From Allomuricauda sp. CP2A (lineage in GTDB: Bacteria; Bacteroidota; Bacteroidia; Flavobacteriales; Flavobacteriaceae): a stretch of 64,000 nucleotides of DNA. The number at the start of each line of letters is the position of its first letter. Within the stretch, counting starts at the first letter, position 1. The stretch spans positions 1-64,000 of the forward strand of contig NZ_LXTT01000139.1 in assembly GCF_001683915.1 (NCBI RefSeq), read 5' to 3'. Of the stretch, positions 4,014 to 45,555 are shown one piece after another. Below the pieces are notes generated by a model. The model saw nothing but the letters and a program-made list of their open reading frames with translations. It was not told the origin of the DNA and made no database searches. The position numbers and the translations under genes are program-made.

Positions 4014-4219
4014 AATAAAGAATTTCTTGAAGCCGACTATCCGCAAGGCAAGCATAGGGGTATTTCCCCAGTTTCATTTTGACCTAAAGATCAAAAACCG
4101 AAATTCTTTATTTTCATCACCCGAAACTGCCCATGGCAATTTCGACCTCTCCAAAGGAGAGGTGAAGCGAACTGACAAAATAAACCAAGGGCAAAGCCCC
4201 GAGGAATTCTATGATTAAG
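4014..4219. repeat. 205 bp dispersed palindromic repeat, copy 1
   Basis: Runs from aataaagaatttcttgaa to tgattaag and matches 43779-43988 along its whole length with only scattered differences. Internal structure: outer arms aataaagaatttc and gaaattctttatt enclose roughly the first 95 bp; then a second palindrome cgaaactgc/caatttcg, then cctctccaaaggagagg. A 63-codon open frame (4027-4218) lies wholly inside the repeat and is not thought to be a gene. Here the repeat sits directly upstream of the aldehyde dehydrogenase start. It resembles MITE or REP-type elements moved by an enzyme encoded elsewhere. Together with the terminator at 4242-4270 it fills the 320 bp without a gene between 3973 and 4294. 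Confidence 0.8.
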
Positions 4220-42914: not shown

Positions 42915-43778
42915 ATGAGGCAGTTAAAAATCATCAAGCAGGTCACCAACCGAGAATCCAAATCCCTTGACAAATATCTACAAGACATCAGTAAAATTGA
43001 TCTGATTACTGCCCAGGAAGAAGTGGAGTTGGCCCAAAGGATCAGAGCGGGTGATCAATTGGCTCTTGAAAAATTGACCAATGCCAACCTGCGATTCGTG
43101 GTTTCTGTGGCAAAACAATACCAAAACCAAGGGTTAAAACTCCCCGATTTGATCAACGAGGGCAATGTTGGCCTTGTGAAGGCTGCCAAACGATTTGATG
43201 AGACTCGTGGATTTAAGTTTATTTCCTATGCGGTGTGGTGGATCAGGCAGTCCATTCTTCAGGCGTTGGCCGAGCAATCACGTGTGGTTCGACTTCCCTT
43301 GAACAAAATTGGTTCCATCAATAAAATCAAAAAGACGTTTTCCTATTTGGAGCAGGCCCATGAGCGTCCGCCTTCAGCCGAAGAGATTGCCAAGGAATTG
43401 GACATGACTGTCTCCGAAGTAAAACAATCCCTAAAAAATACGGGTCGGCACGTTTCCATGGATGCACCCCTGAAGGAAGGGGAAACCTCCAATTTATACG
43501 ATGTGCTCAATGCAGGGGATTCACCAAAACCGGACAAAGGCTTGATGCACCAATCCCTGAACACGGAAATCAACCGGGCCTTGGATACGCTTTCCCCCCG
43601 TGAGGCGGATGTGGTCAGATTGTACTACGGAATTGGCGACCAGCCTTCCATGACCTTGGAAGAAATAGGAAGTACGTTTGACCTGACCCGGGAGCGTGTA
43701 CGGCAAATTCGGGAAAAAGCCATCCGTAAGTTGCGACATACCTCAAAAAGCAAGATTTTAAAATCGTATTTGGGATAA
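42915..43778 (+). CDS. rpoD: RNA polymerase primary sigma factor (short Bacteroidota type)
   Basis: 287 aa, the standard length for the Bacteroidota housekeeping sigma, which lacks most of region 1.1. Region 1.2: [16 protein letters not shown]. Region 2: [51 protein letters not shown]. Region 3: [19 protein letters not shown]. Region 4: [27 protein letters not shown], the -33 element HTH. It directs transcription of most genes. Stop followed by the second copy of the 205 bp repeat and a terminator. Confidence 0.95.
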
Positions 43779-43988
43779 AATAAAGAATTTCTTGAAACAA
43801 ACCATCCCTGAGGCTAGCCATAGGGGTATTTCGCCAGTTTCATTATGATTTTTAGGTCAAAAACCGAAATTCTTTATTTTTCCTCACCCGAAACTGCCCA
43901 AAGCAGTTTCGACCTCTCCAAAGGAGAGGTGAAACGAACTGAAAAAGTAAGCCATGGGTCAAAGCTCCTGATGAATTCCATGATTAAG
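43779..43988. repeat. 205 bp dispersed palindromic repeat, copy 2
   Basis: Begins one base after the sigma gene stop (aataaagaatttcttgaa) and ends tgattaag. Matches 4014-4219 throughout, with the same three nested palindromes: the outer aataaagaatttc/gaaattctttatt, cgaaactgc/gcagtttcg and cctctccaaaggagagg. Here the middle palindrome is perfect, whereas copy 1 has changes in one arm. The open frame 43845-44081 in it is not a gene. Confidence 0.8.
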
Positions 43989-44006
43989 CCCAAACAAACG
44001 GAAAAT

Positions 44007-44038
44007 AAAAAAGGGGATGTTTTTGACATCCCCTTTTT
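44007..44038. terminator. Bidirectional terminator after the sigma gene
   Basis: aaaaaaggggatgt and acatccccttttt form a strong G+C-topped stem with a 5 nt loop and T runs on both strands. It ends the sigma transcript and also the minus-strand micro-ORF operon, whose last stop is at 44059. Confidence 0.85.
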
Positions 44039-44058
44039 CATGATATTCACTAAAACTA

Positions 44059-44160
44059 TCAAGGTCTACTCAACTGGGTAATATCAAAATCAGTGAGCAT
44101 TTCGTTCAAACTTTGAATAAAATTCAAGTACGCGTTGTTTTCTTGGTTATGATTTTTCAT
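44059..44160 (-). CDS. Micro-ORF A, 33 aa, paralogue of micro-ORF B
   Basis: Starts MKNHNQENNAYLNFIQSLNE and ends DITQLSRP. Aligned with micro-ORF B it shares Y-L-x-F-(I/L)-Q-x-L-N-E-(M/I)-L in the same register. Amphipathic helical pattern, neutral to acidic, no signal peptide or membrane segment. It lies 22 nt after the stop of ORF B and 20 nt before the terminator, so the pair looks like the end of the operon that begins with the gene at 45555. Function unknown; no modifying enzyme nearby to suggest a RiPP. Confidence 0.5.
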   Translation of the reverse strand: MKNHNQENNAYLNFIQSLNEMLTDFDITQLSRP

Positions 44161-44182
44161 GGAAAAACGTTTGGGGTGTTAT

Positions 44183-44281
44183 CTATAAATAATCCAATTC
44201 GGCCAGTTCGTTTATGCTCAGGATTTCGTTGAGTTCTTGCAAAAAGGCCAAGTATTCTTCTCCGTAGGTATCGTATAGCAT
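44183..44281 (-). CDS. Micro-ORF B, 32 aa, paralogue of micro-ORF A
   Basis: Begins MLYDTYGEEYLAFLQELNE and ends NELAELDYL; strongly acidic. Shares the helix motif YLxFxQxLNExL with micro-ORF A, which argues that both frames are under selection, since their flanking DNA is not similar. It follows the 44400-44759 gene after 118 bp, which could hold its own promoter. Confidence 0.5.
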   Translation of the reverse strand: MLYDTYGEEYLAFLQELNEILSINELAELDYL

Positions 44282-44399
44282 GATAATCTTGCGTTTAAAT
44301 GTTTGGGTCTTTGTTATAACGTGAATCTATTGTAAAGATTATGCTGTTACAATAAATTGTGGTGAAATCCTATTTTCTGGTTGTGAAATCACTACCGGT

Positions 44400-44759
44400 T
44401 TATTTTTCCATTTCCATAATGTCCAAGGCCACTTCAAAATCTAGGTCAGCATCTATTTTATGGGGCCTAATATTGAATTCATCATAGATGAAGCACAGGT
44501 TCATGGGCAATCTTCTCCGCTCCCTTTCCGAAGCAACAACCCCCAATTTTTCCTGTAACGCACATTTTATTTCGTAGGCTTTGTTACTGATCTTGGTTTC
44601 CTCAGCGTTTTCCAATTCTTCCAAAAAGGGAATCTCTCTTTTGTCGCCTACCTCCAACATTTGATCCAATAATAGCAACTTGCATTCCAAATCGGGCGTA
44701 TGCTGAAATAGTTGGTAAAAAATGCTTTGTAGGTATTTGGGAAGTTCATTGTTTGCCAT
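44400..44759 (-). CDS. Small helical protein of unknown function
   Basis: 119 aa from ATG 44759; a longer reading from 44804 would overlap the upstream gene. All-helical and acidic, cytoplasmic: NELPKYLQSIFYQLFQHTPD, CKLLLLDQMLEVG, IPFLEELENAEETKISNKAYEI, ending DFEVALDIMEMEK. I do not recognise the family. It begins 16 bp after the stop of the degenerate-Hpt gene, so the two are co-transcribed. Confidence 0.7.
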   Translation of the reverse strand: MANNELPKYLQSIFYQLFQHTPDLECKLLLLDQMLEVGDKREIPFLEELENAEETKISNKAYEIKCALQEKLGVVASERERRRLPMNLCFIYDEFNIRPHKIDADLDFEVALDIMEMEK

Positions 44760-44775
44760 GGCAACAGATTTTTTA

Positions 44776-45555
44776 TTACATAGCTCGTAGCAATTCCATT
44801 TCAAAATCCACCTGCTCTTCCACTTTGGGATATTCCTTCACAAATTGTTCATATAGAAACGAGTGGTGTTTGTGGTCATTGTCCGTGCGGCATAGGGTGA
44901 TGATTTCCTGGGTGATTTCCAATAGGCCATCGGTTTTCATCATTCTCAAACAGGATTGTACGTTTTGGCACGACAGATCCAACGCGTTAAAGTTTTCGTT
45001 TTGGAGATGGATTTTGGCACTGCCCACAAATTCCAATACATTTTGTTTGAACAGCTTCACCAATTCTTCCAAAAGCTCCATTTGCCCCATACAGTCATCC
45101 AAGACAGGTCTTAAATTGATGTTGTTTGAGGAAAAGCTGGATTCCAAGCTTCGCTCAATAGACTTCATTTTGCCAGACTTCCTAATATTTTCAGTGGATT
45201 TCTTATTCAAACCTTGGGCAACATGCCTCAATGTTGACACAATTTCTTTTTGCTTTGGGGATAACGGGGTTTTATCCAAGGTATCTATAAGGGAAAGTAA
45301 GGTTTGGTGTGTAACATCTCCATCTTTTGATGTTGAGGGCCTTCCTTCTGAACCCTGAATGCCCACTCGCTCATAGATCACTTCCAATTGTTTCATTTCA
45401 GGAACTCCAAAAACCTTGTTTTCCAATCCTTGCTTGAACACTTCAAATGATTTTTTGAGTTCTCCCGCTTCAACAGTGCCCAATTCCTCATACGAAAAGT
45501 TGCTGAGCCCTATTTCCAATTTTTCCAAATACGTGAGTAGTTCCCTTGTTTCCAA
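44776..45555 (-). CDS. Helical protein with degenerate histidine-phosphotransfer (Hpt) domain
   Basis: 259 aa, no membrane segment. Residues about 145-259 read like an Hpt four-helix bundle: PVLDDCMGQMELLEELVKLF, NVLEFVGSAKIHLQNENFNALD, then CQNVQSCLRMMKTDGLLEIT where Hpt proteins have A-H-x-L-K-G. The phosphorylatable His is replaced by Gln, so phosphotransfer is not expected; it may instead bind receiver domains. The N-terminal half is helical and unassigned. Heads a four-frame minus-strand operon (45555 to 44059) and is divergent from the M19 dipeptidase gene. The Hpt call is from pattern only. Confidence 0.6.
   Translation of the reverse strand: METRELLTYLEKLEIGLSNFSYEELGTVEAGELKKSFEVFKQGLENKVFGVPEMKQLEVIYERVGIQGSEGRPSTSKDGDVTHQTLLSLIDTLDKTPLSPKQKEIVSTLRHVAQGLNKKSTENIRKSGKMKSIERSLESSFSSNNINLRPVLDDCMGQMELLEELVKLFKQNVLEFVGSAKIHLQNENFNALDLSCQNVQSCLRMMKTDGLLEITQEIITLCRTDNDHKHHSFLYEQFVKEYPKVEEQVDFEMELLRAM

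What the first reader, a model, noticed from the sequence alone, without database searches (positions are those of the whole stretch)
44059..44281. Two tandem paralogous micro-ORFs next to the sigma gene
Two minus-strand frames of 33 and 32 codons share the helix motif Y-L-x-F-(I/L)-Q-x-L-N-E-(M/I)-L, though the DNA around them is not similar. They lie behind two helical proteins and just ahead of a strong terminator, so they are probably transcribed. They could be signalling peptides, small regulators of the pseudo-Hpt protein, or antitoxin-like helices.
Basis: seen in the sequence. Interest (0 to 1): 0.6.

Follow-up and report, generated by a model that had tools for sequence, protein, structure and literature searches.

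The report
Two conserved microproteins beside a dead kinase
Two tiny neighbouring genes of 32 and 33 codons, absent from the family databases searched, look like real and very strongly conserved genes with their own on-switch and stop signal in a group of mostly marine bacteria, kept beside a signalling protein that has lost its catalytic parts; what they bind is still unknown.

Summary
Both frames (u1 44183-44281, u2 44059-44160, minus) occur in the same order in 68 of 68 congener loci long enough to tell. u1 has pN/pS 0.07 and is as conserved as the primary sigma factor; u2 has 0.19. They are paralogues (0 of 200 shuffles). They have their own conserved promoter, with 9-bp direct repeats 12 bp apart found once in the genome, and a conserved terminator.

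In relatives the pair ends a hybrid-kinase/polysaccharide cluster. In the window's genus that cluster has shrunk to a kinase-less protein with an Hpt-like fold, its phospho-histidine replaced (67 of 68 Gln), plus a HEAT-protein remnant. u2 accompanies the kinase-derived protein in 48 of 49 genomes and none of four with u1 alone. It co-diverges with the Hpt-like domain in the genus, but not outside it once the response regulator is controlled for.

Best reading: intracellular helical microproteins, u2 docking on the pseudo-Hpt, u1 on a more conserved partner. Translation and binding are inferred. Secreted-signal, antitoxin and RNA readings are disfavoured.

The parts
44183..44281 (-). u1, 32-codon microprotein gene, MLYDTYGEEYLAFLQELNEILSINELAELDYL; 8 acidic and no Lys/Arg residues
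   Evidence: 68 of 68 congener loci; pN/pS 0.071, RpoD 0.057; strong matches in 53 of 299 family genomes; AlphaFold2 helix 2-31, mean pLDDT 76.9, pTM 0.39
44059..44160 (-). u2, 33-codon paralogue of u1
   Evidence: 68 of 68 congener loci, 19-28 nt after u1; pN/pS 0.194; E<=5.2e-7 in 48 of 299 family genomes; paralogy
44359..44388 (-). operator-like tandem repeat TTTCACAAC (44388-44380), 12-bp spacer, TTTCACCAC (44367-44359)
   Evidence: xACCACA in 132 of 141 distinct u1 upstream contexts, consensus of both repeats 21 bp apart; single place in the whole genome at <=3 mismatches; absent from 5 of 5 outlying u1 loci
44322..44352 (-). promoter-like element: TTG (44352-44350), 20 nt, TAGATTCA (44329-44322); relatives mostly TAnGTTTA. 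Start of transcription inferred near 44317
   Evidence: conserved; resembles the sigma-A -7 box TAnnTTTG of Flavobacterium (PMC9723704, passages); start of transcription is inferred, not measured
44005..44041 (-). intrinsic terminator, 16-pair stem, after u2
   Evidence: the only consensus structure of the transcript alignment, 7 of 16 pairs with changes on both sides
44776..45555 (-). P0001, kinase-less protein with Hpt-like C-terminal domain (about residues 149-258), TTG start; derived from a hybrid histidine kinase
   Evidence: 70 of 71 congeners; ends match those of 580-610 aa kinases of relatives; Hpt fold; His to Gln in 67 of 68, Lys in 1
44400..44759 (-). P0002, 119 aa, remnant of the C-terminal part of the cluster's HEAT-repeat protein
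   Evidence: best E 2e-13 to L162; HEAT_2 in the relative's protein; present in 68 of 68 congener loci
42915..43778 (+). primary sigma factor gene, convergent neighbour; not thought to be part of the system
   Evidence: Pfam sigma-70 regions 1.2-4 on the homologue in L159; gene position; not found near u1 in L167, L170, L171, L177

Best explanation
u1-u2 is a two-gene micro-operon with its own regulated promoter and terminator. It encodes two paralogous, mostly helical, intracellular microproteins that act by binding other proteins. u1 is the older one: it occurs without u2 and without the kinase cluster in sister lineages and is as constrained as RpoD, so its partner is probably a widely conserved protein. 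u2 is the paralogue that goes with the hybrid kinase cluster and most likely docks on the Hpt-like domain of the kinase-derived protein (P0001 in the window). In the window's genus the kinase, receiver, phospho-histidine and polysaccharide genes are gone, so what is left would be a phosphate-free complex of pseudo-Hpt (P0001), P0002 and the microproteins, whose level is set by the u1-u2 promoter. SHOWN by sequence: frames, conservation, paralogy, promoter and terminator conservation, co-occurrence, loss of the histidine. INFERRED: translation, helical binding, the u2-Hpt contact, an intracellular site, a LytTR-type regulator at the repeats. My odds: real protein-coding micro-operon 0.97; own promoter used 0.9; u2 binds P0001 about 0.4.
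For: Coding: pN/pS 0.071 and 0.194 over 68 loci, RpoD 0.057, P0001 0.344, P0002 0.293; u1 93.8% against RpoD 94.3% mean pairwise identity in the 38 loci with a whole RpoD. Own unit. Co-occurrence in 299 family genomes: 49 have P0001 homologues outside six weak matches at E 7.6e-7 to 8.1e-4; all 49 have u1 and 48 have u2; the four genomes with u1 but no P0001 match (G077, G288, G021, G250) have no u2. In 7 of these 49 genomes (5 lineages besides the window's genus) the P0001-u1 distance is under 3 kb instead of 5-10.5 kb, that is, the polysaccharide part is missing, and u1 stays in all (gene content read in L166-L170, and L168). Two of them (L167, L169) also lack a P0002 match. Co-divergence: u2 with the Hpt-like domain is the top pair given all other proteins: 0.67 of 15 pairs, n=68, 0.58 of 36 pairs with dipeptidase, DUF72 protein, helicase and RpoD as controls, n=41; rank-based 0.54. 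P0002 and u1 lie between the two, so one shared recombination tract is not an easy explanation.
Against: u1 exists without the kinase, so the kinase is not its needed partner. The holders of u1, u2 and kinase form one clade in the RpoB tree (11 of 30 genomes), so the co-occurrence is largely one inheritance, not many independent events. Outside the genus the u2-Hpt signal is 0.35 (n=30) but -0.02 (n=21) and -0.25 (n=13) once the response regulator is a control, where u2 follows that regulator (0.47, 0.59); in the congeners whose u2 has an 'LK' motif (n=22) it is 0.17. The 41 named loci largely repeat the 68, and label permutations ignore the tree. No similarity of u1 or u2 to any part of P0001 was found. 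Synonymous divergence of u1 (0.674) and u2 (0.738) is below that of P0001, P0002 and RpoD (0.80-0.84), which hints at codon bias or some RNA constraint. No co-folding, proteomics or ribosome data were at hand.
Confidence: 0.42

Rival explanations
1. Both microproteins serve one conserved housekeeping partner elsewhere in the cell and only happen to sit behind the kinase cluster; u2 is a diverging spare copy.
For: u1 as constrained as RpoD; u1 alone, with other neighbours, in L171 and L177; own promoter; u1 kept whenever the cluster shrank.
Against: u2 is absent from the four genomes without P0001, present in 48 of 49 with it, and co-diverges with its Hpt-like domain in the genus.
Confidence: 0.33
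2. They were post-translational controllers of the polysaccharide synthase of the cluster, as HfiA is for a holdfast glycosyltransferase (recalled; only the start of an abstract, PMC6530869, was seen), and persist by inertia.
For: In the relatives the pair closes the kinase-glycosyltransferase-sulfatase-YaiO cluster.
Against: Strong purifying selection in a genus where 63 of 70 genomes have no YaiO match at all, the window genome among them; u1 predates the cluster or outlives it.
Confidence: 0.08
3. The ~310-nt transcript works as a regulatory RNA, the frames being secondary or leader peptides.
For: Lowered synonymous divergence; folding z-score -2.74, 0 of 100 shuffles as stable, terminator included; short autonomous unit.
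Against: In the alignment of 22 transcripts the only consensus structure is the terminator; changes sit at third codon positions (u1 30 of 32, second positions 4 of 32); nothing lies downstream to attenuate; no Rfam match over the frames.
Confidence: 0.07
4. Secreted signalling or two-peptide bacteriocin-like pair, or an antitoxin/toxin component.
For: Tandem short paralogues behind a promoter with LytTR-like repeat geometry, as in peptide quorum systems of Gram-positives (PMC2766830, passages).
Against: u1 is almost invariant, the opposite of diversifying signals; no leader seen and no exporter among the genes read; no toxin partner; 68 of 68 fixed; no PADLOC or PHROG match; none in viral contigs.
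Confidence: 0.05

Closest known systems
Small-protein regulators of sensor kinases (MgrB of PhoQ; PMC8404706 and PMC10576120, starts of abstracts in a listing only; Sda of KinA, recalled)
   Same: Under 50 aa, linked to a two-component protein, probably act by binding
   Different: MgrB is a membrane protein that binds a live kinase; u1/u2 look soluble and acidic or near neutral, and in the window's genus the kinase is gone
Hpt domain proteins (PF01627) and hybrid-kinase phosphorelays
   Same: P0001's C-terminal domain has the fold (HptB 7c1i, TM-score by target 0.82) and descends from a hybrid kinase's Hpt
   Different: No phospho-histidine, no kinase, no receiver; below Pfam's cut-off (12.9 of 24.6 bits)
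LytTR-type operators (9-bp repeats, 12-bp spacer; PMC2766830, passages)
   Same: Repeat length, spacing and place upstream of the promoter
   Different: No regulator identified; the sequence is not a named LytTR site; single copy in the genome at <=3 mismatches
HfiA, small inhibitor of a holdfast glycosyltransferase in Caulobacter (recalled; start of abstract PMC6530869)
   Same: Small cytosolic protein tied to polysaccharide synthesis and two-component signalling
   Different: No sequence comparison made; the target class is missing from the window's cluster

Membership tests
Protein-coding small genes (real microproteins) | Purifying selection at the protein level | tested here: met
   pN/pS 0.071 and 0.194, 68 loci
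Protein-coding small genes (real microproteins) | Translated product detected | not testable with these tools
   no ribosome profiling or proteomics at hand
u1 and u2 as one paralogous family | Profile similarity beyond composition | tested here: met
   hhalign E 4.9e-9; 0 of 200 shuffles
Hpt domain (PF01627), for P0001 | Hpt helical-bundle fold | tested here: met
   Foldseek: 18 of the first 20 PDB chains are titled as Hpt proteins; best E 0.012, none at E<=0.001
Hpt domain (PF01627), for P0001 | Score over Pfam's gathering cut-off | tested here: not met
   12.9 bits against 24.6; 0 of 32 congeners list Hpt at E<=0.01
Hpt domain (PF01627), for P0001 | Phospho-accepting histidine | tested here: not met
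   Gln in 67, Lys in 1 of 68 congeners; His in 14 of 17 homologues outside the genus
Small regulators of sensor kinases (MgrB/Sda type) | A live kinase as binding partner | tested here: not met
   P0001 lacks the kinase core; binding itself not testable
LytTR-regulated promoter | 9-bp direct repeats separated by 12 bp upstream of the promoter | tested here: met
   exact 15-base distance ACAAC to xACCA in 96 of 103 contexts that have both (of 145)
LytTR-regulated promoter | Bound by a LytTR response regulator | not testable with these tools
   no regulator looked for in the genome
Toxin-antitoxin module | Adjacent toxin and patchy distribution | tested here: not met
   68 of 68 fixed; no PADLOC or Pfam match for the four proteins
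Secreted peptide signal | Leader or signal sequence and exporter | tested here: inconclusive
   none seen by eye in the frames or in the neighbouring genes read; no signal-peptide program run
Structured regulatory RNA | Conserved structure apart from the terminator | tested here: not met

The most novel reading that the evidence does not exclude
A class of bacterial microproteins outlives the phosphorelay it served: u1, a 32-residue helix as constrained as RpoD, holds a conserved core partner, while its duplicate u2 has become the dedicated ligand of a pseudo-Hpt domain that no longer carries phosphate, so that peptide docking has replaced phosphotransfer as the signal.
Probability: 0.25. Interest if true: 0.82.

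Novelty: new variant of a known kind. Interest (0 to 1): 0.6.

Why it matters
Genes under 40 codons are mostly missed by annotation and by family databases (no Pfam, NCBIfam, PHROG or PADLOC match here). This one is kept with the constraint of a primary sigma factor over a large group of Flavobacteriaceae, has a defined promoter with an operator-like repeat, and sits beside a phosphorelay protein that an entire genus kept after losing its chemistry. That gives a small, genetically simple system in which to ask what an Hpt-like domain does without phosphate, and what a 32-residue protein must touch to be held so still.

Tried and rejected
Decoy idea: u1/u2 look by eye like the N-terminal helix of the kinase (LL..L..LE..L.NFS.EEL). 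Rejected as homology: hhalign probability under 1%, and kinase frames do not stand out in hmmsearch of 271 frames.

Regulon of the operator: a first genome pattern with the wrong spacer (N12-14) gave four unrelated places and missed the window's own site; the right spacing gives one place only. More degenerate sites of a regulon are not excluded. My notes first counted the repeat spacer as 13 (22 bp apart); recounted on the sequence it is 12 (21 bp apart).

u1 outside the family: 296 genomes of the order and 198 of the phylum gave strong matches only in the same family (10 and 4 genomes); the weak ones (E 0.002-0.02) lie in long frames, carry stops, or are u2. The G030 match is an out-of-frame stretch without a start. 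Three weak matches (G072, G144, G248; E about 0.005-0.008) lie in frames of 214-335 aa and are taken as chance.

Solved structures: nothing for P0001's profile at E<=1, nothing meaningful for u1 or u2. No copy of u1 or u2 beside the separate YaiO genes of three congeners, within the about 1.5 kb on each side that was held. Literature: none listed a paper that appears to describe these peptides; only listings and, for three papers, passages were seen, so this is no proof of absence.

Full report
WHAT WAS CHECKED. The window lies in a 4.27-Mb genome (G000, 173 contigs). I call them u1 (44183-44281) and u2 (44059-44160), both minus; P0001 is the 44776-45555 gene and P0002 the 44400-44759 gene.

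CONSERVATION IN THE GENUS. P0001 was found in 70 of 71 genomes of the genus (the miss is 75% complete). The stretch downstream was read in all 70; in two (L096, L098) the contig ends too early. In the other 68, u1 and u2 are both there, once each, in the same order and 19-28 nt apart. There are 24 versions of u1 and 51 of u2. Over all pairs pN/pS is 0.071 for u1 and 0.194 for u2; P0001 has 0.344, P0002 0.293 and RpoD 0.057. In the 38 loci that hold a whole RpoD, mean pairwise identity is 93.8% for u1 and 94.3% for RpoD. Synonymous divergence of u1 and u2 (0.674, 0.738) is somewhat lower than that of the other three genes (0.795-0.835), which may be codon bias or some RNA-level constraint.

PARALOGY. 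u1 (50 versions) and u2 (83 versions) align as profiles over 24 columns without a gap, and no column shuffle of 200 comes near. The shared block is Y..F(I/L)..LN..L, which looks like an amphipathic helix. AlphaFold2 draws u1 as one helix, residues 2-31, with moderate confidence (mean pLDDT 76.9, pTM 0.39). u1 has eight acidic and no Lys/Arg residues; u2 has four and two.

DISTRIBUTION. In 299 genomes of the family (236 genera) u1 is found strongly in 53 (51 with the first profile) and u2 in 48. The same sample has 55 genomes with a P0001 match. Six of these are weak (E 7.6e-7 to 8.1e-4: G010, G030, G200, G223, G242, G256) and have no u1. The other 49 (one of them, G106, by its N-terminal part at E 2.2e-5) all have u1, and 48 have u2; the exception is G057, an assembly with 8% contamination. 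Four genomes have u1 and neither P0001 nor u2 (G077, G288, G021, G250). Outside the family no strong match was found among 296 genomes of the order and 198 of the phylum, many of which belong to the family itself. A scan of GTDB contigs with the pattern MLYD[TI]YGE gave 242 confirmed stretches, of which 80 were kept; names include Allomuricauda/Flagellimonas/Muricauda, Croceitalea, Croceivirga, Maribacter and Kriegella. Two scans of viral contigs gave none. In an RpoB tree of 30 chosen genomes the 11 holders of u1 and kinase form one group (99/98) within a larger group (98/96) that includes the four with u1 alone (midpoint root). u1 is thus either older than the cluster or outlives it; the co-occurrence is mostly one inheritance.

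THE ANCESTRAL NEIGHBOURHOOD. In L159 the genes are: hybrid kinase (HisKA, HATPase, receiver, Hpt; 586 aa), a 123-aa receiver protein, a 914-aa HEAT-repeat protein, a family-2 glycosyltransferase, a sulfatase-fold/TPR protein, a YaiO barrel protein, u1, u2, and then the convergent sigma gene. P0001 matches the two ends of that kinase, and P0002 the C-terminal part of the HEAT protein. By coordinates, 42 of the 49 genomes have 5-10.5 kb between the P0001 homologue and u1, and 7 have under 3 kb: G000 and G229 (window genus), G050, G057, G203, G212, G225. I read the gene content of five of the short ones in full (L166-L170). L167 and L169 also lack a P0002 match. In genus g51 one genome is short (G050) and one long (G270), so shrinkage happened more than once. 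YaiO is absent from the window's genome and found elsewhere in 7 of 70 congeners. A lineage that lost u1 together with the cluster would not show in this count.

A PHOSPHORELAY PROTEIN WITHOUT CHEMISTRY. The histidine of the Hpt motif (AAHKIK in relatives) is Gln in 67 and Lys in 1 of 68 congeners. Of 17 homologues outside the genus, 14 keep His; the three that do not (L167, L169, L170) are all short-cluster loci, while 2 of the 5 short ones (L166, L168) keep it and 12 of 12 long ones do. The predicted structure of P0001 has a confident C-terminal bundle (blocks of pLDDT 90-97; whole protein 78.3) whose best PDB matches are Hpt proteins (HptB 7c1i first, E 0.012, TM-score by target 0.82; none at E<=0.001). 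By sequence it is below Pfam's Hpt cut-off (12.9 against 24.6 bits).

OWN TRANSCRIPTION UNIT. Directly upstream of u1 lies a conserved block: TTTCACAAC, 12 bp, TTTCACCAC, AATTTATTG, 20 nt, TAnGTTTA (TAGATTCA in the window). The last two elements fit the Flavobacterium sigma-A promoter, whose -7 box is TAnnTTTG at -12 to -5 (PMC9723704, passages seen); the start of transcription would then be near 44317. xACCACA is present in 132 of 141 distinct upstream contexts (133 of 145 when the outlying u1 loci are included) and in none of the five outlying ones (G057, G077, G288, G021, G250). In the 103 contexts of 145 that hold both ACAAC and xACCA, their distance is exactly 15 in 96. Two 9-bp repeats 12 bp apart is the geometry given for LytTR regulators (PMC2766830, passages seen). 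With up to three mismatches the element occurs once in the genome. After u2 stands a terminator, the only consensus structure in an alignment of 22 transcripts. The window's transcript folds better than its shuffles (z -2.74), terminator included.

WHO BINDS WHOM. As an indirect test I correlated divergence between proteins. Over the 68 congeners, with all others held constant, u2 with the Hpt-like domain is strongest of 15 pairs (0.67), followed by the P0001 N-terminus with P0002 (0.60); the rest are 0.32 or lower. It stays first with ranks (0.54), without the five most diverged loci (0.70) and for close pairs only (0.62), but is 0.17 (sixth of 15) in the 22 congeners with an LK-type u2. In 41 named loci with dipeptidase, DUF72 protein, helicase and RpoD as extra controls it is first of 36 pairs (0.58); these are largely the same species. 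In 33 genomes of other genera (30 with all fields) it is 0.35, and 0.34 with the kinase core as control (n=20), but -0.02 (n=21) and -0.25 (n=13) when the response regulator is a control; u2 then follows that regulator (0.47, 0.59). So the contact is supported in the window's genus and not settled elsewhere; since Hpt and response regulator are each other's partners, a u2 site at their interface would fit both results, but that is a guess.

MECHANISM. I therefore hold that u1 and u2 are intracellular helical microproteins made from a regulated micro-operon; that u2 docks on the kinase-derived Hpt-like domain; and that u1, kept far more strictly and also found without the kinase, has a more conserved partner. 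Translation, binding and location are inferred. The closest comparisons are small regulators of kinases (MgrB and the like), but a live kinase, which defines them, is missing here.

VERDICT. Novelty: a new variant of a known kind (small helical regulators near two-component proteins). Interest 0.6: unusually strong constraint on 32 residues, a kept but chemically dead Hpt protein, and clear tests; no partner proven.

Noticed in passing
43880-43932 (-): Match to Rfam whalefall-1 RNA (RF01762, 41.2 bits, cut-off 37) made of two palindromes. Relatives L031-L033 pass straight from the terminator to the end of the sigma gene, so this stretch looks like an insertion; the exact palindrome occurs only in the window's own loci among 322 fetched, with a related one at 4122-4144 (3 mismatches). 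It may be a mobile repeat rather than an RNA gene.
   Followed up: partly
45555 (start of P0001) and named loci L193-L272: The codon aligned with P0001's start is TTG in 49 of 51 named loci (one GTG, one ATG), and homologues in other genera also begin in frame with a Leu codon there: a conserved weak start.
   Followed up: no
44400-44759 (P0002): P0002's divergence follows that of P0001's N-terminal 60 residues (partial r 0.60 of 68 loci; 0.34-0.37 in the named loci): a possible second contact in the same complex.
   Followed up: partly
L159 and similar loci of Maribacter-like genera: Hybrid kinase, receiver, HEAT protein, glycosyltransferase, sulfatase-fold protein and YaiO barrel form a long cluster between a dipeptidase and the primary sigma gene; the literature searches made listed no paper on it.
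   Followed up: partly
L167 (G225), L169 (G050), L170 (G057): The Hpt histidine is lost only in loci where the polysaccharide part is gone (3 of 5 such loci outside the genus, 0 of 12 long ones), as if the phosphorelay loses its chemistry with its output.
   Followed up: partly
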